Below are positions 24,086-52,011 of a stretch of 61,290 nucleotides of DNA, piece by piece. Under the pieces are notes generated by a model. It was not told the DNA's origin, searched no databases, and was given only the letters and a program-made list of their open reading frames with translations. The stretch is from an uncultured archaeon. GTDB taxonomy: Archaea; Thermoproteota; Bathyarchaeia; 40CM-2-53-6; CALIRQ01. The stretch is taken from NCBI GenBank assembly GCA_938042195.1, contig CALIRQ010000015.1, positions 1 through 61,290 on the forward strand, read 5' to 3'. Both the position numbers and the translations under genes were made by a program. The first letter of the stretch is position 1. Every line of letters starts with the position of its first letter.

Positions 24086-25976
24086 TTGTCGGGATTCGGC
24101 TCTGAGGCATTGGAAGCGCTGAAGGCCAAGTTCGGGGAAAAGGGATATGAAAAACTCATGGCCATAGATAACCCAATTTTACATGGCTTCATAGACAAGT
24201 ACATAAACCTTTGCGAGCCGGAGGCGGTCTTTGTTTCGACGGGCTCTCCCGAGGACATTGGGTACATACGCGAGGCGGCCATAAGGAACGGCGAGGAGAG
24301 GGAGCTCGCCATCGATGGCCATACGGTACACTTCGATGGCTATGACGATCAGGCGCGAGATAGGGAGAATACGCTGATATTGGTCCCGAAGGGAACCCCA
24401 ATGCCTTACGTGAGGACCGGGGATAGGGAGGAAAAGCTGAAGGAGATCCATGAGATCATGAGGGGGATAATGAGGGGCCATGAGATGTATATTTGCTTCT
24501 ATTCTCTCGGGCCCCCCTCCTCCGAGTTCGCCATACCCTGCATCCAAATAACCGATTCAAGCTACGTGGCGCATAGCGAGAACATACTCTATAGACAAGG
24601 CTACGAGATGTTCAAGAGGCTGGGCCGAGGGGCTAGGTTCTTCAAATTCGTCCATTCTCAAGGGGAGCTCGATGAGAGGAAATGCTCGAAGAATATATCT
24701 AAGCGCAGGGTTTACATCGACTTGGAGGATGAAACCGTCTATAGCATAAATACCCAATACGGCGGGAACTCGATAGGCCTCAAGAAGCTCTCCTTGCGCT
24801 TGGCGATCAATAGGGCCTCCAAGGAGGGCTGGCTGGCGGAGCATATGCCGATAATGGGTATTGGGGGCCCCGGAGGCAGGAGGACATATTTCACCGGCGC
24901 ATTCCCATCGTTATGCGGCAAAACCTCCACGGCCATGCTCGAGGGCGAGACGATAGTCGGGGACGACATAGCCTATCTCCATAAGAGAGATGATGAGGTG
25001 AGGGCGATCAACGTGGAGAAGGGCATATTCGGCATAATCATGGACATCAATAGCAGGGACGACCCCCGGATATGGAAGGTGCTCCATAGCCCCGGCGAAG
25101 TCATCTTCTCCAACGTATTGGTCGCGGAGGATGGAAGCGTTTATTGGATCGGGAAGGATGGCCCGCCGCCCCCTAGGGGTTATAACCATTCCGGGGAATG
25201 GTGGATCGGGAAAAGGGACGCGAGGGGCAAGGAGATCCCGCCATCCCATCCGAACGCCAGGTTCACCGTTGGGCTGGAGAGGTTCGAAAACATCGATCCG
25301 ATGTGGGACGATCCGAGAGGGGTCCCGGTGAGGGCCATAGTATACGGCGGAAGGGACTCGGGTGCCGGTGGAGGAGGCATTCGATTGGGAGCATGGGATA
25401 GTGACGAAGGGCGCCTCGCTCGAATCCGAAACCACCGCTGCCGTCTTGGGGAAGGAGGGCATTAGGGAATTTAACCCCATGTCCAACCTCGACTTTTTAT
25501 CAATCCCGCTTGGAAGATACATACAAAACAACTTGGATTTCGGGAAGGGGTTGAGGAACCCCCCGAGGATATTTTCCGTCAACTACTTCCTCCGAGGGGC
25601 TGACGGCGCCTTCCTCAACGATAGGGGGGATAAGAGGGTTTGGTACAAATGGATGGAGCTCCGGGTCAATGGGGAAGTGAACGCCTTAGAAGCGCCGACC
25701 GGAAGGATACCGCTTTATGAGGACCTTAGGAGGCTTTTCAGGGAGATCCTCGGCAAGGATTACTCCGAACGGGACTACGCCGAGCAATTCAAGATAAGGG
25801 TTCGCGAAAACTTGGCCAAGATCGACAGGGTCATCGAGATCTATAGGTCCGTCCCAGATGCGCCGAGGAGGCTCTTCGAATTGTTCGAGGAGCAGAGGCA
25901 TAGGTTGATCGAGGCCCAGGAGAGGCACGGATATTATATATCGCCCTTCGATCTATCCGCAAACCAATCCCGTTAG
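24086..25976 (+). pseudogene. pckG: GTP-dependent PEP carboxykinase, frameshifted in this sequence
   Basis: Together two overlapping frames encode a complete GTP-type PEPCK of about 625 residues. Frame 1 (24086-25465) carries the N-terminus, the kinase-1a region in TGAFPSLCGKTSTAML and the metal/nucleotide segment GDDIAYL, and the KRDARGKEIPPSHPNARFT region. At 25360-25376, just after VYGGRDS, homology switches to the next frame (VPVEEAFDWEHGIVTKGASL) and runs to 25976. Frame 1 otherwise ends in a nonsense tail. A one-base insertion or two-base deletion explains it. The enzyme normally converts oxaloacetate to PEP. The codon use of both halves looks intact, so a sequence error or very recent mutation is likelier than an old pseudogene. 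Confidence 0.88.
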
Positions 25977-26591: not shown

Positions 26592-27368
26592 ATGGAAAGA
26601 TTGGTTAAGAAATGCCCGTCCTGCGGTTACAGTAACAGGGACGATGCTGCCTTCTGCGCGAGTTGCGGCTTGCCCCTTCCATCGGCAGTCCCCCCTCCAG
26701 CGGTGAAACCCGTCCCATCTGTGCGAGTCGTCACGCCAGTTGCGCCAGCTGCCCCGGCGAGGGTTCCCGCGCCGGGAATGTGCTACTATCACCCCCACTT
26801 GCCAGCGGTGAACATTTGTAGCAGATGCGGCAGATCGATATGCAGGTACGACTCGATACCTTACGATAACCTAATCCTCTGCCCTCCATGCTATCAGACG
26901 ATAGCCCAGATAGTTCCGGCACCTGCGGCTCCAGCGATCGGCCCCGTTCCGGTGGCTCCGCCGGCCATTGGCGTGCCTCCGACCCCGGCGCCGGGATATG
27001 CCATGGTGGCCCCGGTGGTCCCCCCCGCTAGGGCCCTTTGGGGCTTCATCCTCTCGATAATAGCGGGGATAATGGTCCTGATCAATGCGGCCGGGCTGAC
27101 GAGCGCGTGGCTCTACCTGACTCTGGCCAGCATATTCCCATGGATAGGCACGATAGCCCCATTCCCGCCTTGGATGCTTATAGGCATCGGGGTCATCTTG
27201 GGCATAATAATGATAATAGGCTCGCTGCTCATGATAATGGGGTATGGGACGATAGGCTCCATAGTGGTCTTCGTGCCCGCGATAATAAGCCTGATAATGG
27301 GCGGGGGCTTCGTCGCCGGATTCATATTGGGCATAGTAGGCGGCATAATGGCCATGCTGGGGAGGTAG
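26592..27368 (+). CDS. Membrane protein with zinc ribbon and B-box-like zinc finger
   Basis: A 258-residue protein. Residues 8-25 form a zinc ribbon (CxxC ... CxxC). Residues 64-100 form a second module with spacing C-x2-H-x8-C-x2-C-x4-C-x2-D-x9-C-x2-C, which follows the B-box type 2 pattern closely apart from the last pair. Proline/alanine/valine-rich linkers surround it, and about four TM helices fill residues 149-255. It would place a zinc-binding, possibly E3-like, domain at the cytoplasmic membrane face. A nearly identical module without TM segments follows the E1 gene. E3 function is inference. A TTTTTT tract ends the gene. Confidence 0.82.
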   Translation: MERLVKKCPSCGYSNRDDAAFCASCGLPLPSAVPPPAVKPVPSVRVVTPVAPAAPARVPAPGMCYYHPHLPAVNICSRCGRSICRYDSIPYDNLILCPPCYQTIAQIVPAPAAPAIGPVPVAPPAIGVPPTPAPGYAMVAPVVPPARALWGFILSIIAGIMVLINAAGLTSAWLYLTLASIFPWIGTIAPFPPWMLIGIGVILGIIMIIGSLLMIMGYGTIGSIVVFVPAIISLIMGGGFVAGFILGIVGGIMAMLGR

Positions 27369-27425: not shown

Positions 27426-28937
27426 TTGCCCTACATCAGCATATCTAGGGATTGTAGGAGGAAGGTCCTAGATCACGCGAAGTCATCCGAGGGCGGTGAG
27501 GTCATAGGCCTACTCTTGGGGAGATTGGTTGGCCAATCTTTGGTGATCGAGGACGCGATGCCCGGGAGGGGGGAGAGGGATGGGGAGCGCATCATCCTCA
27601 CGGGCGAGGAATTGGCCAAGATGGCCGACGATGTAATGAGCGGCAGGGTGAAGGGCAACATAATCGGCTGGTACCATTCGCATCCGGGGCGCGGGGCCTT
27701 CCTATCGGACGTCGATATCTGGACGCAATTGAAGCTCCAGCAGTTCTCCCCCCATGTCGTCAGCATGGTAGTGGACCCCGAAAGGGAGGAGGTCGGCTTC
27801 TTCTTCGTCGACCCGATCAGCCGCGAACCCCGTCGCGTGAGCGATGGCGAGATATTCGAGTTCAGCCCCGGCGAGCGCCCCATGCCCGGAGCGCCTCCCC
27901 AGCGCCCCACCTCCTACAGGATTCCATCCGCGAGATCTATAGCCATCGTGGCACTCCTAATGGCTTTGATAGGCAGCTCGATGCTTTTCCTCATGATTCC
28001 CCCTTCTCAAGTAAAGCAACCGGCCGTCCAAATCCTGCCAATCCCCGGGGCGCTCATAGGCGAGGAGCTGGAGATCTCCGCCGAGATCGCCGAGGGTAGC
28101 TTTGGGCTAAAGAACGTGATCCTTTTTTATAAGACTAAGGAGCAAACGGATTGGGCCCAGGTCAAGATGGAGAGGCGAAGCGGGTCCGTCTTCTCCGCCA
28201 AGGTGCCTCCATCCAAAATTACGGGCGATGTGGTCTATTTTATATCGGTGGAGGACGAGGCTGGGAACATCGTCAAAAGCCCCTTGGCCCTCGTTAGCTT
28301 GAAGGGCTTCGAGCTGGTTGGGACGAGGACCATCGCGAAGCTTTATTGGGATTCCCACTCCGAGATGCGCCTCCAAGTGATCCCCGCGAATGGGTTCTCG
28401 TCTTGGGTGAGCTTCGAGGTCTTGGGCCTCCCGGAGGGCATCGGCGCGGAGTTCGAGCCCGCGACGGCGACGCTACAAGGGGGCGAGCCGATGGAGGTCC
28501 TGCTCAAGCTGAGCCCACTTGGCCCATCCCGCCCGACACCTGGGGAATATAGGCTATTGATAAGGGGCATCCATGGGGCATTCTGCCGAGAGCTCCCGGC
28601 CGATCTCATGATACCGACATTCGACCTCTCGATCCAGCCCCCCTCCCTAACGGTCCTATACGGCGGTGTCGCCAAATTCAACATTTCCATACTCCGTAAG
28701 TACGGCTTCGATCGCGAGCTCAAGTTAGAGGTGAAGGGATTGCCACCGGATCAATTCGAAGCGAAGATCATAGTGCCTAGCGGGATCATGTCGGCCCCGG
28801 AGTCCACTTTGGCCCTAGAGGTTCACGTTAATCCCTATGCGAAGATTGGCGCATATGATTTCAAATTGATCGCGACCGGCGGCGGGATTGAAAGGGAGGT
28901 GTCAGCGAACCTTAAAGTTTCTCGAACGAGGGTTTAA
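27426..28937 (+). CDS. Membrane-anchored JAMM/MPN+ (Rpn11-like) isopeptidase
   Basis: A 503-residue protein. Residues 1-150 are an MPN+ domain with complete JAMM metal site: E25 in GGEVIGLLLG, H84 and H86, S94 and D97 in GWYHSHPGRGAFLSDVD. Such domains cleave after the di-glycine of ubiquitin-like proteins. A TM helix follows (171-191, SIAIVALLMALIGSSMLFLM), then about 310 residues of beta-sandwich-like repeats that should face outside the cell. Rpn11 homologues in the Caldiarchaeum operon process the ubiquitin precursor; here the anchor and exterior part are notable. The TTG start follows GGTGGGGA. It heads the Ubl-E2-E1 cluster. Confidence 0.9.
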   Translation: MPYISISRDCRRKVLDHAKSSEGGEVIGLLLGRLVGQSLVIEDAMPGRGERDGERIILTGEELAKMADDVMSGRVKGNIIGWYHSHPGRGAFLSDVDIWTQLKLQQFSPHVVSMVVDPEREEVGFFFVDPISREPRRVSDGEIFEFSPGERPMPGAPPQRPTSYRIPSARSIAIVALLMALIGSSMLFLMIPPSQVKQPAVQILPIPGALIGEELEISAEIAEGSFGLKNVILFYKTKEQTDWAQVKMERRSGSVFSAKVPPSKITGDVVYFISVEDEAGNIVKSPLALVSLKGFELVGTRTIAKLYWDSHSEMRLQVIPANGFSSWVSFEVLGLPEGIGAEFEPATATLQGGEPMEVLLKLSPLGPSRPTPGEYRLLIRGIHGAFCRELPADLMIPTFDLSIQPPSLTVLYGGVAKFNISILRKYGFDRELKLEVKGLPPDQFEAKIIVPSGIMSAPESTLALEVHVNPYAKIGAYDFKLIATGGGIEREVSANLKVSRTRV

Positions 28938-28983: not shown

Positions 28984-29244
28984 ATGAGGCTATTCATACA
29001 AGCCCCCATCGGGCCCCAGACCGGGCTGGCGGAGATAGAAGTGATACCGGATCATACGATCGGGGAGATAAAACAGCAGGTGTGCGCCTCATTCGGTGTC
29101 GACCCCTCCACGGTCGCCTTGATGTACGGCGGCTCGATCTTGGATGAGAACTCGACCGTGGCTCAAGCGGGAATCCCAGAGAATGCCCAGTTGGCGCTGA
29201 TGCCCTACAACATAATAGGCGGGCGGCCTTGGATTACGCCCTGA
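28984..29244 (+). CDS. Ubiquitin-like modifier precursor
   Basis: An 86-residue beta-grasp protein. Pattern matches ubiquitin: strand 1-2 hairpin, TIGEIKQQVCASFGVDPSTV helix, LMYGGSILDENSTVAQAGI (compare LIFAGKQLEDGRTLSDYNI), and a C-terminus IIGG at 77-80 followed by a removable tail RPWITP. Cleavage after G80, presumably by the adjacent JAMM enzyme, would expose the di-glycine. The only lysine is K30, aligning with ubiquitin K27. The tail codons overlap the E2 start by 16 bases. Strong ribosome-binding site GGAGGTGAGAAGGG. Confidence 0.93.
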   Translation: MRLFIQAPIGPQTGLAEIEVIPDHTIGEIKQQVCASFGVDPSTVALMYGGSILDENSTVAQAGIPENAQLALMPYNIIGGRPWITP

Positions 29245-29810
29245 TCTATAGGGAGAAATCGATATTGAACCATCAATTCCCCACGGTTAGCGCATTGGGG
29301 GATCCCCCGGTCGTATATGAGGGGCTACTCAGATGCGAAAAGGGCCCAGTGAAGAAATTGGCCGAGAAGGGGAAATGGCCATTCGTGGAATATGTGAAAT
29401 GGAACAGGTTCAGGATGGAGTTGCCGATGGAGTATCCCCTGAGGCCCCCCATCGTCACTTGGCTAACGGAGATCCCCCACCCCAACATAGTGCCCGGGAT
29501 CCCCGGGGCCGTTTGCGTATCGGTCCTCGGGGAGGGGTGGAAGCCAAAGCTCGGGCTGGTCACGGTAGTCAATTCCCTCTCCTACCTATTGACGGATCCC
29601 AACCCGGAGAATGTATTCGATCACCCGATCTGCATGAAGGCGGCTAACGTTTGCCGATCCTATGGATTCCCCAGGATGGCCCAGGGCTCCAGCAAGGAAG
29701 TTGTGAGGTTCAACGTAGTGCCGATCCCGAGGCCGATGCCAAAGGCCGGGCGGGAGGATGCGCCCCGATTCAAAATGGGACAGAGTTGGGGAATTGAAGA
29801 TAAGGGCTAG
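29229..29810 (+). CDS. Ubiquitin-conjugating enzyme E2-like protein
   Basis: A 193-residue UBC-fold protein. Canonical E2 features are visible: MELPMEYPLRPPIVTWLTEI, the HPN motif at 84-86, catalytic C96 in GAVCVSVLGEGWKPKLGL, and LLTDPNPENVFDHP after it. It would carry the activated Ubl as a thioester. A basic/proline-rich C-terminal extension (about 160-193) has no obvious domain. The TTG start is inside the last codons of the Ubl gene; the end overlaps the E1 start. Confidence 0.93.
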   Translation: MDYALIYREKSILNHQFPTVSALGDPPVVYEGLLRCEKGPVKKLAEKGKWPFVEYVKWNRFRMELPMEYPLRPPIVTWLTEIPHPNIVPGIPGAVCVSVLGEGWKPKLGLVTVVNSLSYLLTDPNPENVFDHPICMKAANVCRSYGFPRMAQGSSKEVVRFNVVPIPRPMPKAGREDAPRFKMGQSWGIEDKG

Positions 29811-31044
29811 ATTGCCATCAGTCGAGGAGATCGAGCTGGAGCTGGCGGAGGGCTCTAGGGCATCCGATCTGAAATCGCTCGTATGCGGCCGGCTCGGCAT
29901 AGAGCCCGAGGCCACAGAAATATTGGGCCCCCGCGGCGCTCTCGCGGAGGGGGATTCCTTGGAGGGCTTGGATTCGGTCGTCGTGGACTACCTCTGGGCT
30001 AGGCAGATGATGCTGTGGGGAAGGGAGGGCCAATCCAGGATAAGGAATTTGAGGGTGGTGGTGGCCGGCGCCGGGGCGATAGGCAATGAGCTGGCCAAGA
30101 ACTTGGCCATGCTGGGCGTCGGGGAACAGGTGATAATAGATTACGATCGGGTTGAGGAATCAAACCTCAACAGGGCGATCTTCTTCAGGGAGGAGGATAT
30201 CGGCAGGAACAAGGCGGAGGCTCTCGCGGAGAGGCTGAAGGAGGCTTTCCCGCTCACTAGGACCTTGGCCATAAACGATCGATTGGAAGCGATCCCCCTT
30301 GGGATATTCTTGAATTCCGATGCGATCCTATCGGGCTTGGACAACGCCATATCGAGGATCTATCTATCGCAGATTTCTAGGAAGTATCTAATCCCACTCA
30401 TCGACGGCGGCATAATCGGCTCCCAAGTCAGGGTTCAGACCTACATCCCGCCAGATTCCCCATGTCCGGCTTGCGCCCTGCCGCCCGGGAATTACAAGGA
30501 CCTAGCGGGGCTGAGGAACCCATGCGCGCCCGCTGGGGAGGAGGCAAAGATCCCCTCGCTCCCGACCTCGGCCTCCCTAGCCGCCTCGATCCAAGCCCAA
30601 GAGCTCGTTAAGATCGCCCTTGGCTATGAGGAGTTCCTTGGGAGCGGATCTTGGCCTAAGGCCCATGGGAAACCGCTCGAGGGGGTCCTGATAGTGGATC
30701 TTGACCATAATCGCTATAGCGTAATGGATCTGAAGAGGAATGAGCGCTGCTTGGTTTGCGGGAAGGGTGGGCTCGCCGAGAAGGTCGCGAGGAGGTTGAA
30801 GATAGCATTGAAGGGTCTGAAGGGCATCTGGGACCTCGAGGCCGCCCTAAAATCCGAGCTGGATGCGGAGGAGTTGATCCGCCTCGAAACGCTCCCCTCA
30901 AGTGCTTGGGGGTCCCTCGACCCCATCGAGCATTTGAGATCCGGCGGGAAGGCCTTAGCTATATTTAAAAATCGCGCCGGCGATTATGAAGAGGCCGTGA
31001 TCGAGTCGGAATGGCGAGATGGAATCCATGCCAAACTGTCCTAG
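29794..31044 (+). CDS. Ubiquitin-activating E1-like enzyme with N-terminal beta-grasp region
   Basis: A 416-residue ThiF/E1-family adenylating enzyme. Residues about 1-68 resemble a ubiquitin fold (KIRARLPSVEEIELELAEG, then a helix, then GLDSVVVDYLW). The Rossmann core has GAGAIGNELAK, IIDYDRVEESNLNRAIFF and DNAISR. Zinc is probably held by C224/C227 (CPAC) and C319/C322 (CLVC). C244 in LRNPCAPAG, before IPSLPTSASLAASIQAQE, is the best thioester candidate. The TTG at 29794 starts exactly at the beta-grasp region; ATG 29758 adds 12 residues. The C-terminal about 80 residues are of unknown fold. Confidence 0.9.
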   Translation: MKIRARLPSVEEIELELAEGSRASDLKSLVCGRLGIEPEATEILGPRGALAEGDSLEGLDSVVVDYLWARQMMLWGREGQSRIRNLRVVVAGAGAIGNELAKNLAMLGVGEQVIIDYDRVEESNLNRAIFFREEDIGRNKAEALAERLKEAFPLTRTLAINDRLEAIPLGIFLNSDAILSGLDNAISRIYLSQISRKYLIPLIDGGIIGSQVRVQTYIPPDSPCPACALPPGNYKDLAGLRNPCAPAGEEAKIPSLPTSASLAASIQAQELVKIALGYEEFLGSGSWPKAHGKPLEGVLIVDLDHNRYSVMDLKRNERCLVCGKGGLAEKVARRLKIALKGLKGIWDLEAALKSELDAEELIRLETLPSSAWGSLDPIEHLRSGGKALAIFKNRAGDYEEAVIESEWRDGIHAKLS

Positions 31045-31330
31045 CTGCGGGGCGGAGAACCCGCCGAACGCGAAATATTGCGATCGTTGCGGCAAGCCCA
31101 TGATAATCACCAAGATCATAACACCGCTTCAAGCCGGGCCTGCCCAGCAAGCCCAGCCTTGGGCCGGGACCGCGATACCGCCCATAGGATCTTGCTTCTA
31201 TCACCCTTCCCTGCCGGCCTCTGCCATCTGCGGCAGATGCGGCAGATCCATTTGCGCCTACTGCTCAATCCAGTTCTCCACAATGCGGTTGTGCCCTGAC
31301 TGCTATGAGATATTCGCCAAGAGGCTCTGA
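31019..31330 (+). CDS. Small zinc-ribbon plus B-box/RING-like protein (candidate E3)
   Basis: A 103-residue protein with a zinc ribbon (C7, C10, C21, C24) and a two-zinc module of spacing C59-x2-H62-x8-C71-x2-C74-x4-C79-x2-C82-x9-C92-x2-C95. It occupies the place of the small RING finger protein (srfp) that follows E1 in Ca. Caldiarchaeum. The His in the first pair and the short spacing fit B-box type 2 better than a classical RING. It shares the core with the membrane protein at 26592, e.g. ICGRCGRSICAYCS versus ICSRCGRSICRYDS. Starts at 31019 or 31028, overlapping E1. E3 activity is inferred. Confidence 0.85.
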   Translation: MESMPNCPSCGAENPPNAKYCDRCGKPMIITKIITPLQAGPAQQAQPWAGTAIPPIGSCFYHPSLPASAICGRCGRSICAYCSIQFSTMRLCPDCYEIFAKRL

Positions 31331-31338
31331 ATCCCCTT

Positions 31339-32997
31339 TCAGCCCTCCTGCTTTATCCTGCCCGATCCCTTCAACCTCTCGATCGACGCCTTTATCGCGT
31401 CTATCGGAAGACCCAGATCCTCGGAGGCCTCGGCCCAGGATATCCTCCCCCCTTTCTCCGCAAGATATCTATATACTTCCTCGTCCACGTCCCTAGGCGC
31501 CCTGACCCCCTCGACCATCTCGCCGCATCTATCGCAGTATTTCGCCCCGATCGGGATCATGGCTCCGCACCTCGGGCAGGATTTCAAGGCCTCCGGCGGG
31601 GGGACCATCGCCACGGGAGTTTCCCCCCGAATCCCCGGGCCCCGCCTAGGCCCAACGCCCCTTTTGAGGCGGAGCAGGAGGACCGAGAAGAGGGCGAGTA
31701 GCGCGGCGATCAGGATAGCCAAGATGACCACGAGGCCCGTATAGTCAGCCCTCCATACGGCCCTTATGGCCTTTGGCCGATCCATGGTCAAGGTGCCGCT
31801 CGCGGTTTCTCCCTCGAAATCCCCGCTCCACCTCTGAAAGACGTACTTCACCAGCCAATCGCCCACCTCCCTATCCACGGAGAAGTTCGCCGTGGACCCC
31901 GCGTCGTACCATCCCCCGCCCCTAGCCCTACCGTGCTCCGTTTCAATAGATAGATAGTATTGGGTTTTGTAAATGACCTCGAGAGAATGCGGTGAATCCA
32001 TCTCCACTCGGAGGGGCCCGGCCCCAACGCCCCTCCCATTCAAGACCCAGCCGTCGAACACAAACCTCGTCCCCTTGTCCCAATCTATAGGGCTCCTCGG
32101 GGGGGCGAGCTCCACAACTGAGCCGGCATCGTACCAATCGCTCCGCTTGACCTCAGCCCCCTTCTCGATCAAGCTTGGCTTGACTTGGACCTCTAATAAG
32201 TATTGGAGCTTATAATTGGCAACGAGATGCTTGGGCCCATCCATCGTCAACGTCCCGTTGGGGGACGATCCAATGAAATCCCCGCTCCAATTCTTGAAGG
32301 CATAGCGGGCGCTCGGCCCGGCGCCTATGGCTGGGGGGACCGAGAACTCCCCCTTCGCACCCTCATCGTACCACCTCACGGACTCCAAATAGCTGAGGTT
32401 CGATGGGGTGGCGCTCACCCTCAGCGCGACTTGCCTCCTCCAGTTGGCTATGGCCGTCTTCGGCCCATCCATCCTTATCGGATTCGACCTTTCGCCTTGA
32501 CCGCTTGCATCGCCGCCCCAGCCCGCAAATATGTAGCGTTCGTCCCCGCTCTCCCCCGCGACGATCCTCGAAACGACCCTCACCGTGGCCGTTTCGCCCT
32601 CGTCGTACCATCCACCGCCCTCCACTACCCCCCTCTCGGATCTTACTTGAAGATAGAATTGCCTCCTATAGAAGAACTTCAGGTCCGAGCCCCCGGAAAC
32701 TAGGAAGGCGTTTTGGGGGCAATAGTATCTAGCGCCCCTCTCCCCCGACTTGCTTGGAACATAGGGATCGACGGATACCTGCCGCTCTCCGGTTAGATTT
32801 AGGATGTAATAGCCGCCCCCCATCGCCTCCCCAACTTGCGCTCCATCCACGTAGATCCGCGTGGAATAGGAGGATGGGAGGCCGATCGGCTTTACGATTA
32901 CGGCATATGGGGCCTGGGCCATGGCCGGGCCTATCGCGGAGGAGAGGAGGAGCAGGATGAGCATCGGGAGGGGTGGGCCGAGGGCGGCGGCTTTCAT
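31339..32997 (-). CDS. Secreted-repeat, single-pass, zinc-ribbon/winged-helix protein
   Basis: A 552-residue protein. Signal peptide 1-28 (hydrophobic core, AMAQA site). Four outside repeats of about 75 residues, each with a WYDEG/WYDAG motif and a W-G/S-G-D or similar and MDGPK-like end; these resemble divergent InlB B-type repeats. TM helix about 423-443, a basic stop-transfer (LRLKRG), then a cytoplasmic zinc ribbon (CPRCG ... CDRCG, near 474-491) and a C-terminal winged-helix-like segment (YRYLAEKGGRISWAEASEDL). The layout suggests an outside sensor with an inside nucleic-acid-binding end. It converges on the small B-box gene, 8 bases away. Confidence 0.8.
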   Translation of the reverse strand: MKAAALGPPLPMLILLLLSSAIGPAMAQAPYAVIVKPIGLPSSYSTRIYVDGAQVGEAMGGGYYILNLTGERQVSVDPYVPSKSGERGARYYCPQNAFLVSGGSDLKFFYRRQFYLQVRSERGVVEGGGWYDEGETATVRVVSRIVAGESGDERYIFAGWGGDASGQGERSNPIRMDGPKTAIANWRRQVALRVSATPSNLSYLESVRWYDEGAKGEFSVPPAIGAGPSARYAFKNWSGDFIGSSPNGTLTMDGPKHLVANYKLQYLLEVQVKPSLIEKGAEVKRSDWYDAGSVVELAPPRSPIDWDKGTRFVFDGWVLNGRGVGAGPLRVEMDSPHSLEVIYKTQYYLSIETEHGRARGGGWYDAGSTANFSVDREVGDWLVKYVFQRWSGDFEGETASGTLTMDRPKAIRAVWRADYTGLVVILAILIAALLALFSVLLLRLKRGVGPRRGPGIRGETPVAMVPPPEALKSCPRCGAMIPIGAKYCDRCGEMVEGVRAPRDVDEEVYRYLAEKGGRISWAEASEDLGLPIDAIKASIERLKGSGRIKQEG

Positions 32998-33101
32998 GGC
33001 TCGGCAAATCCCTCGGAGGAAACGATCTTAAAACCTTTTGTAATCTCCCGACTACCCCTCGAAGGGAGGCGCGGAGGCGGACAGGCGCCATGAGGGGGGG
33101 C

Positions 33102-33431
33102 GTGAGCAGGTATTACAAGGGTAGGAGCAGGGAATACCGGGCCATGGGGAGCCTGAAGGCCGATGGCTGGTTATGCAGCAGGAGCGCCGCCTCGCATGGC
33201 CCGGTGGATATATTCGCCGGGAAGGATGGCCGAGTCCTCTTGTTGCAGGTCAAGGGGGATAGGGCCGTGAGGGAAGAGGAGAGGATGGAGCTCGTTAAAT
33301 GGGCCAAGGCCTATGGGGCCAGGGCGGAGGTATGGTACTTTGGGCGAAGCGGGATCGAGAAGGAGGTCGTCTACGAACCCGGCCCCAAAGGGGAGCCCCG
33401 GGACGGGCCGATCCGCCCGGGCGGATCTTGA
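33102..33431 (+). CDS. Hjc-like Holliday-junction resolvase / restriction-fold nuclease
   Basis: A 109-residue protein with the archaeal Hjc pattern: N-terminal YYKGRSREYRAMGSLKADGW with catalytic Glu, RSAASHGPVDIFAGKDG (conserved Asp) and LLLQVKGD (Q-x-K), then an Ala-rich helix. These match the PD-(D/E)xK core of Hjc. The GTG at 33102 follows GGGGGG; ATG 33090 is an alternative. The C-terminal tail is rich in Gly and Pro. Whether it resolves junctions or acts elsewhere cannot be told from sequence. Confidence 0.82.
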   Translation: MSRYYKGRSREYRAMGSLKADGWLCSRSAASHGPVDIFAGKDGRVLLLQVKGDRAVREEERMELVKWAKAYGARAEVWYFGRSGIEKEVVYEPGPKGEPRDGPIRPGGS

Positions 33432-51925: not shown

Positions 51926-52011
51926 AGCCCCGGGCGGGACTCGAACCCGCGACCCGCGGCTTGCCCGCTAGGATACAAGGCCGCTGCTCCGCCGGGCTGA
52001 GCCACCGGGGC
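51926..52011 (-). tRNA. tRNA-Thr(TGT) with anticodon-loop intron
   Basis: Minus strand. Acceptor GCCCCGG/CCGGGGC, D arm GCTC-AGCCCGGCG-GAGC, anticodon arm GCGGC-CTTGTA-A-GCCGC (anticodon TGT), T arm GCGGG-TTCGAGT-CCCGC, discriminator T. A 12-base intron (51962-51973) at 37/38. CCA is not encoded (TTCA follows), unlike the other three tRNAs here. A TTTTAAAAT promoter element lies upstream near 52051-52062. Confidence 0.93.

What the first reader, a model, noticed from the sequence alone, without database searches (positions are those of the whole stretch)
27426..28937. JAMM protease carries a TM helix and a large extracytoplasmic region
The complete JAMM site (E25, H84, H86, S94, D97) is followed by a TM helix at 171-191 and about 310 residues of Ig/FN3-like beta repeats. 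Rpn11-type enzymes are normally soluble or proteasomal. Topology would keep the protease inside and the sandwich outside, as if an outer signal controlled deconjugation.
Basis: partly seen in the sequence, partly recalled or inferred. Interest (0 to 1): 0.72.

Follow-up and report, generated by a model that had tools for sequence, protein, structure and literature searches.

The report
Membrane-anchored archaeal deubiquitinase with outer stalk
In one group of archaea, the enzyme predicted to remove ubiquitin from proteins is welded to a membrane helix and a stalk outside the cell, inside a complete ubiquitin gene cluster; related species keep the stalk but have disabled or dropped the enzyme part, so membrane location seems to matter more than catalysis.

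Summary
ORF 27426-28937 encodes an Rpn11-type JAMM domain with a complete E25/H84/H86/S94/D97 site. It continues through a disordered linker, one confident transmembrane helix (about 169-190) and three beta-sandwich (Ig-like) domains, with cytoplasm-in, sandwich-out topology. The gene is the second of a Bathyarchaeia ubiquitin operon: zinc-ribbon/B-box/3TM, JAMM-TM-Ig, Ub, E2, E1, zinc-ribbon/B-box.

Orthologues sit in the same slot in 7 of the 14 ubiquitin-bearing genomes found in the order, so the fusion is real and conserved.

The new result concerns the relatives. In 4 of the 7 membrane JAMMs the catalytic glutamate is gone (A, R, R, K) while the zinc ligands persist. In four other genomes the slot holds the TM-Ig part alone, and the JAMM sits elsewhere behind a coiled coil. 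All 20 soluble JAMMs checked keep the glutamate. The window's copy looks active: its JAMM domain has dN/dS 0.12, against 0.32 in a pair lacking the glutamate.

Best reading: a membrane-tethered deubiquitinase or ubiquitin-docking protein working at the inner face of the membrane. The stalk is more likely an anchor than a switch; the "outer signal" idea is untested. New variant of a known kind.

The parts
27426..28937 (+). JAMM-TM-Ig protein, 503 aa, TTG start
   Evidence: orthologues
27426..27869 (+). JAMM/MPN+ domain (aa 1-148), cytoplasmic
   Evidence: Pfam JAB; CSN5/Rpn11/CsRpn11 by sequence and CSN5/Rpn11 by fold
27498..27500 (+). catalytic glutamate codon (E25); lost in 4 of 7 membrane orthologues
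   Evidence: aligned with CsRpn11 Glu24 (PMC6043591)
27675..27716 (+). zinc-site segment H84-x-H86-x7-S94-x2-D97, invariant in all 7
27870..27929 (+). Pro-rich flexible linker (aa 149-168)
   Evidence: pLDDT below 50 at 157-168
27930..27995 (+). single transmembrane helix (aa 169-190)
28014..28922 (+). three Ig-like beta-sandwich domains (aa 197-291, 292-404, 405-499; borders approximate), predicted outside
26592..27368 (+). zinc ribbon + B-box-like zinc finger + 3 TM protein, candidate membrane E3-like partner; dN/dS 0.03
28984..29244 (+). ubiquitin, 86 aa, pro-form ending GG-RPWITP
   Evidence: Pfam 4.8e-11
29229..29810 (+). E2 (UBC)
   Evidence: Pfam 1.4e-17
29758..31044 (+). E1-like (ThiF) with N-terminal Ub-like stretch; true start probably within the first ~13 codons
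   Evidence: Pfam 2e-48; N-terminal Ub matches in orthologues
31019..31330 (+). small zinc ribbon + B-box-like protein (srfp-like, candidate E3)
   Evidence: Pfam DZR 3.3e-8, B-box 4.1e-5
31339..32997 (-). convergent conserved neighbour: signal peptide, InlB-type repeats, TM, zinc ribbon, winged helix; belonging to the system unproven

Best explanation
The protein is a membrane-anchored Rpn11-type deubiquitinase of a complete archaeal ubiquitin operon. SHOWN by sequence and model: intact JAMM site, flexible linker, one TM helix, three outer Ig-like domains, operon membership, orthology. INFERRED: the JAMM domain hangs on a flexible tether at the cytoplasmic face. There it trims the ubiquitin precursor (GG-RPWITP) and removes ubiquitin from nearby, probably membrane, substrates conjugated by E1, E2 and the zinc-finger proteins, one of which (26592-27368) is itself membrane-embedded. 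The outer Ig stalk fixes or positions the enzyme in the cell envelope. Ancestrally the protein was probably JAMM-TM fused (operon tree). In sister lineages the membrane form lost its catalytic glutamate or its whole JAMM domain, leaving a ubiquitin-docking or purely structural membrane component while an unlinked soluble JAMM does the chemistry.
For: Fused protein at the same operon position in 7 genomes of the same order. Active-site spacing identical to CsRpn11, which matures pro-ubiquitin and deconjugates substrates in vitro (PMC5654768). AF2 model: confident JAMM, helix and three sandwiches with a disordered linker; Foldseek gives CSN5/Rpn11 and Ig folds. Topology: positive-inside in 17/17 proteins, no room for a signal peptide, N-glycosylation sequons 69 outside against about 38 expected and 2 inside against about 5. 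In the pair that keeps E25, the JAMM domain is under strong purifying selection (dN/dS 0.122) and more constrained than its Ig part (0.271; resampling P=0.007). Rpn11-like JAMM genes co-occur with this Ub (13 both, 1 Ub only, 1 JAMM only, 23 neither; Fisher 3.5e-8, genomes not independent). Genome-wide 20S proteasome and two Cdc48 ATPases. JAMM loss in f4 is derived on the operon tree (96/95 support for the split that nests f4). f4 genomes carry a coiled-coil JAMM and no membrane JAMM.
Against: No biochemistry. The catalytic Glu is lost in 4 of 7 membrane JAMMs, so deubiquitination is not the conserved role of the family. 7 of 14 Ubs already end in GG, so precursor maturation is not the conserved role either. 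The substrate class and the function of the Ig part are inference. The membrane E3 role of the 258-aa neighbour rests on weak B-box/zinc-ribbon matches.
Confidence: 0.6

Rival explanations
1. Receptor-type deubiquitinase: ligand binding to the outer Ig domains regulates the inner protease.
For: Topology fits; the outer part is under purifying selection (dN/dS 0.27).
Against: Single helix with a disordered linker on the JAMM side is poor for transmitting a conformational change unless by clustering. The outer part is kept where the JAMM is dead or absent. A distant relative has a different outer part.
Confidence: 0.13
2. Membrane pseudo-enzyme or scaffold: the membrane JAMM mainly binds Ub (or the soluble JAMM paralogue, as Rpn8 pairs with Rpn11) and catalysis is secondary or vestigial even in the window species.
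For: E25 lost at least twice on the operon and JAMM trees (G002; G003/G006/G011) with zinc ligands kept. In the pair lacking E25 the JAMM domain is relaxed (0.323) while the soluble copy is tight (0.096). JAMM dropped altogether in four operons.
Against: The window and G001 keep all catalytic residues and show the tightest JAMM constraint (0.122). Eukaryotic MPN- partners lose zinc ligands (PMC4579573), these do not. Nearby acidic residues at -2/-3 could substitute in the variants.
Confidence: 0.2
3. Two unrelated functions joined by operon fusion: a soluble-type JAMM read through into an envelope-structure protein with no functional link.
For: TM-Ig exists as its own gene in f4, in the Ub operon and at a second locus between DNA-repair genes.
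Against: The fusion persists across four families and is ancestral on the operon tree. TM-Ig stays in the Ub operon after the JAMM is lost. Membrane attachment of the JAMM also occurs with other designs, a non-Ig outer part (L106) and a C-terminal tail anchor (L107, L108).
Confidence: 0.05
4. Artefact: misassembly or a hydrophobic core of a soluble domain.
For: None found.
Against: Seven independent genomes; isolated helix between disordered segments in the model.
Confidence: 0.02

Closest known systems
CsRpn11 of Caldiarchaeum subterraneum (PDB 6fjv/6fju; PMC6043591, PMC5654768)
   Same: JAMM fold, identical E/H/H/S/D spacing, encoded beside Ub-E1-E2-E3 genes, accompanies a pro-Ub with a short C-terminal tail
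   Different: CsRpn11 is soluble, 202 aa, with C-terminal helices; here the C-terminus is a TM helix plus three outer Ig domains, the JAMM lies inside the operon on the same strand, and several relatives lack the catalytic Glu
Eukaryotic Rpn11/CSN5 (MPN+) and Rpn8/CSN6 (MPN-) pairs
   Same: Same fold; an active and a degraded JAMM paralogue coexist in some of these genomes (G002, G003, G006, G011)
   Different: Not in a proteasome lid or signalosome; membrane-anchored; degraded copies lose the Glu but keep zinc ligands; no heterodimer shown
Membrane-anchored eukaryotic deubiquitinases such as USP30 (PMC12411550 for USP30; otherwise own knowledge)
   Same: Deubiquitinase held at a membrane by a TM segment
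   Different: USP (cysteine protease) family, not JAMM; no outer Ig stalk
Bacterial Bil / E1-E2-JAB anti-phage operons
   Same: Ub-like, E1, E2, JAB gene set
   Different: PADLOC finds only the generic E1 domain; archaeal chromosomal operon, conserved in a vertical pattern
Haloarchaeal desampylase HvJAMM1
   Same: JAMM isopeptidase
   Different: NCBIfam score 25.6 against a cut-off of 130; works with SAMPs, no E2

Membership tests
Rpn11-type JAMM (MPN+) deubiquitinase | MPN/JAB fold | tested here: met
   Pfam 51 bits against cut-off 22.5; AF2 and Foldseek to CSN5/Rpn11
Rpn11-type JAMM (MPN+) deubiquitinase | E-x(n)-H-x-H-x7-S-x2-D catalytic site with zinc ligands | tested here: met
   E25, H84, H86, S94, D97; spacing as in CsRpn11
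Rpn11-type JAMM (MPN+) deubiquitinase | Partner genes Ub, E1, E2 and a zinc-finger E3 candidate | tested here: met
Rpn11-type JAMM (MPN+) deubiquitinase | Zinc-dependent cleavage after Ub Gly-Gly | not testable with these tools
   needs enzyme assay
CsRpn11 (soluble archaeal Rpn11) | Soluble, no membrane segment | tested here: not met
   TM helix 169-190, positive-inside
MPN- pseudo-deubiquitinase (Rpn8/CSN6/Abraxas type) | Zinc ligands missing | tested here: not met
   H84, H86, D97 present here and in all orthologues; definition from PMC4579573
MPN- pseudo-deubiquitinase (Rpn8/CSN6/Abraxas type) | Heterodimer with an MPN+ partner | not testable with these tools
   no multi-chain prediction offered
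Membrane deubiquitinase (works-like, not a sequence family) | Catalytic domain in cytoplasm, TM anchor | tested here: met
   prediction only
Bil/E1-E2 anti-phage system | PADLOC profile matches for the JAB, Ub-like and E2 genes | tested here: not met
   0 families for JAMM, Ub, E2; E1 matches only over the ThiF core
Haloarchaeal desampylase | NCBIfam equivalog score at or above cut-off | tested here: not met
   25.6 bits against 130

The most novel reading that the evidence does not exclude
In Bathyarchaeia the ubiquitin system is organised on the membrane, and its operon JAMM is turning, at least twice independently, from a deubiquitinase into a membrane-bound zinc-binding ubiquitin receptor while an unlinked soluble paralogue keeps the chemistry. 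This would be an independent, prokaryotic version of the MPN+/MPN- division of labour seen in the proteasome lid and COP9 signalosome.
Probability: 0.3. Interest if true: 0.78.

Novelty: new variant of a known kind. Interest (0 to 1): 0.62.

Why it matters
Archaeal ubiquitin operons are the model for how eukaryotic ubiquitin signalling arose, and the one characterised enzyme (CsRpn11) was read as evidence for a primordial soluble deubiquitinase. Here a close relative is membrane-bound with a large outer part, next to a membrane-embedded zinc-finger protein, in a Bathyarchaeia operon for which I found no description in the held literature. It suggests that some archaeal ubiquitin systems act on membrane or envelope proteins. 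The set of relatives (intact, Glu-less, JAMM-less) is a ready-made natural experiment on what a JAMM domain does besides catalysis, testable with short recombinant proteins.

Tried and rejected
1) Chance or assembly artefact: rejected by orthologues in seven genomes.
2) Hydrophobic segment as core of a soluble domain: rejected by the model and by its position between disordered linkers.
3) Signal peptide or reverse topology: rejected, stop codon 9 codons upstream and positive-inside rule.
4) Anti-phage Bil/E1-E2 system: PADLOC gives only E1-domain matches.
5) Precursor maturation as the conserved role: rejected, 7 of 14 Ubs end exactly at GG.
6) ESCRT-coupled sorting: the Snf7 profile finds nothing in the genome, but it barely detects Sulfolobus, and Bathyarchaea are reported to have Cdv genes (PMC10936438), so inconclusive.
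7) JAMM domain tree: membrane, soluble and coiled-coil copies each form one group, but the order among them is unresolved. The claim that the f4 coiled-coil JAMM is the relocated membrane JAMM therefore rests on mutual exclusivity and on best hits that lean only slightly that way.
8) Relatives of the distant membrane JAMM (G539) with the same protein: none in 80 genomes.
9) Literature for a transmembrane JAMM or a Bathyarchaeia Ub operon: nothing found in the held library.
10) One genome-contig scan with the Ub alignment gave names (Candidatus Bathyarchaeota MAGs) but only 7 loci.

Full report
WHAT IS THERE. The ORF at 27426-28937 (+) is open for 503 codons from a TTG. An in-frame TAG 9 codons upstream fixes the N-terminus within a few residues, and orthologues start at or near the same place. 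Residues 5-109 match Pfam JAB with 51 bits (cut-off 22.5). Against solved structures the best sequence matches are CSN5, CsRpn11 and Rpn11. The active-site residues E25, H84, H86, S94 and D97 have exactly the spacing of CsRpn11 Glu24, His83, His85, Ser93 and Asp96 (PMC6043591). One hydrophobic segment follows (172-190, mean 2.56). An AlphaFold2 model built from 22 session sequences has mean pLDDT 89.4. It shows the JAMM domain to about 148, a low-confidence linker at 157-168, a helix at 169-188 and three beta-sandwich domains to 499. Foldseek finds CSN5/Rpn11 for the first part and Ig-type proteins (HYDIN-like, titin, DIP, S-layer SbsC) for the last.

TOPOLOGY. All 17 membrane proteins compared (JAMM-TM-Ig, TM-Ig, and the two other membrane JAMM designs) have more Lys/Arg in the 20 residues before than after the helix. 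Asn-glycosylation sequons sum to 69 after the helix against about 38 expected from shuffles, and 2 before it against about 5 (related sequences, so only indicative). With no signal peptide possible, the JAMM domain is predicted cytoplasmic, where its ubiquitin is, and the sandwiches outside.

CONTEXT. The window lies in a 1.27-Mb genome. The record titles of related contigs place the lineage in Candidatus Bathyarchaeota. The operon reads: zinc ribbon + B-box-like finger + 3 TM (26592-27368), JAMM-TM-Ig, ubiquitin (GG-RPWITP tail), E2, E1, zinc ribbon + B-box-like protein (31019-31330). A convergent conserved neighbour has a signal peptide, InlB-type repeats, one TM, a zinc ribbon and a winged helix. 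The genome also has a second, soluble JAMM (151 aa, 46% identical) and a third small JAMM near SufS/IscU-like genes, 20S proteasome subunits, two Cdc48-type ATPases and no match for the PAN OB domain.

RELATIVES. This ubiquitin type is found in 14 of 38 genomes of the order and in none of the other genomes searched in the class (257 searched in all). The slot before Ub holds JAMM-TM-Ig in 7 (G000, G001, G002 split over two contigs, G003, G006, G011, G036). It holds TM-Ig without JAMM in 4 (G005, G017, G023, G013; in G013 at a contig end) and nothing in 3 (G010, G021, G015). The TM-Ig-only proteins match the window's C-terminal part over nearly its whole length (down to 5e-26). Six f4 genomes carry an unlinked JAMM behind an N-terminal coiled-coil-like region; genomes with the membrane JAMM lack it. 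Rpn11-like JAMMs co-occur with Ub across the order (Fisher 3.5e-8, genomes not independent).

CATALYTIC GLUTAMATE. Among the 7 membrane JAMMs only G000, G001 and G036 keep the Glu; G002 has Ala (an in-frame 3-base loss, seen in the DNA), G003 Arg, G006 Arg, G011 Lys. The two His, the Ser and the Asp are invariant. All 14 soluble B-type and 6 coiled-coil JAMMs checked keep the Glu. JAMM proteases use Zn and this Glu to polarise the attacking water (PMC6043591). The variants are therefore probably inactive, although acidic residues 2-3 positions upstream could conceivably substitute. Selection agrees. Between G000 and G001 (Glu kept) dN/dS is 0.122 for the JAMM domain and 0.271 for the Ig part (resampling P=0.007). 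Between G006 and G011 (Glu lost) it is 0.323 for the JAMM domain, 0.222 for the Ig part and 0.096 for the soluble JAMM (P=0.997 that membrane exceeds soluble). These are single pairwise comparisons.

POLARITY. A tree of concatenated Ub, E2 and E1, rooted on a distant genome (G539) whose operon also has a membrane JAMM, places G003/G006/G011 outside a group of G036, G000/G001 and f4 (96/95). The JAMM-less f4 operons are therefore nested among JAMM-bearing ones, and JAMM loss is the simpler reading. G539's own protein is JAMM-TM followed by about 370 aa without a Pfam match, next to a zinc-ribbon/B-box gene. Two other genomes (L107, L108) carry Caldiarchaeum-type operons whose JAMM ends in a C-terminal hydrophobic tail anchor. 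Membrane attachment of operon JAMMs thus occurs in at least three designs.

MECHANISM. Shown: architecture, topology by prediction, orthology, operon, conservation. Inferred: in the window species the JAMM is an active deubiquitinase tethered at the inner membrane face. It matures pro-Ub and removes Ub from membrane-proximal conjugates; the very conserved 3-TM zinc-finger neighbour (dN/dS 0.03) is a candidate E3-type partner; the Ig stalk positions the complex in the envelope.

KNOWN VERSUS NEW. By fold and active site this is an Rpn11-type JAMM. It fails the 'soluble' feature of CsRpn11 and the 'zinc ligands missing' feature of MPN- pseudo-deubiquitinases (definition in PMC4579573). I found no paper on a transmembrane JAMM or a Bathyarchaeia ubiquitin operon in the held library; subscription papers and preprints were not searchable. 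Verdict: real, conserved, a new variant of a known kind, with a testable and surprising pattern of catalytic decay.

Noticed in passing
L130:14069-14944 (-), genome G539: Ubiquitin and E2 are fused in one 291-aa frame (..YLIGG-IDVARLLEEY..), so releasing a GG end would need a protease; the JAMM-TM protein lies in the same cluster.
   Followed up: partly
L131:6845-7645 and L132:7062-7853: Caldiarchaeum-type ubiquitin operons whose JAMM (263-266 aa) ends in a C-terminal hydrophobic tail anchor.
   Followed up: partly
window 26592-27368: Zinc ribbon/B-box/3TM protein is, with ubiquitin, one of the two most conserved proteins of the operon (96% identical to G001, dN/dS 0.03), though no enzyme domain is recognised.
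   Followed up: partly
window 31339-32997 (-): Convergent InlB-repeat/TM/zinc-ribbon/winged-helix protein is kept beside nearly all the Ub operons seen; could be a membrane regulator of the system.
   Followed up: no
window about 33060-33431 (+): Small nuclease-like ORF (YYKGRSREYRAM...RSAASHGPVDI) next to the convergent neighbour in several genomes, resembling archaeal Holliday-junction resolvases by eye.
   Followed up: no
window 29758-31044: E1 carries an N-terminal ubiquitin-like stretch; Ub profiles match the start of E1 in orthologues.
   Followed up: no
window 24086-25976: PEP-carboxykinase-like gene is split into two overlapping ORFs (459 and 204 aa) while G001 has one 632-aa ORF: probable frameshift or sequencing error.
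   Followed up: no
L042, L043, L045, L046, L048, L049, L050: In family f4 a second TM-Ig paralogue without JAMM sits outside the Ub operon, usually beside genes that look by eye like FEN1 and Nre.
   Followed up: partly
window genome G000: 20S proteasome and two Cdc48 ATPases but no match for the PAN OB domain (93.6% complete genome).
   Followed up: no
window 51926-52011 (-): Only tRNA call in the window has a four-base anticodon (tgta) and no assigned amino acid.
   Followed up: no
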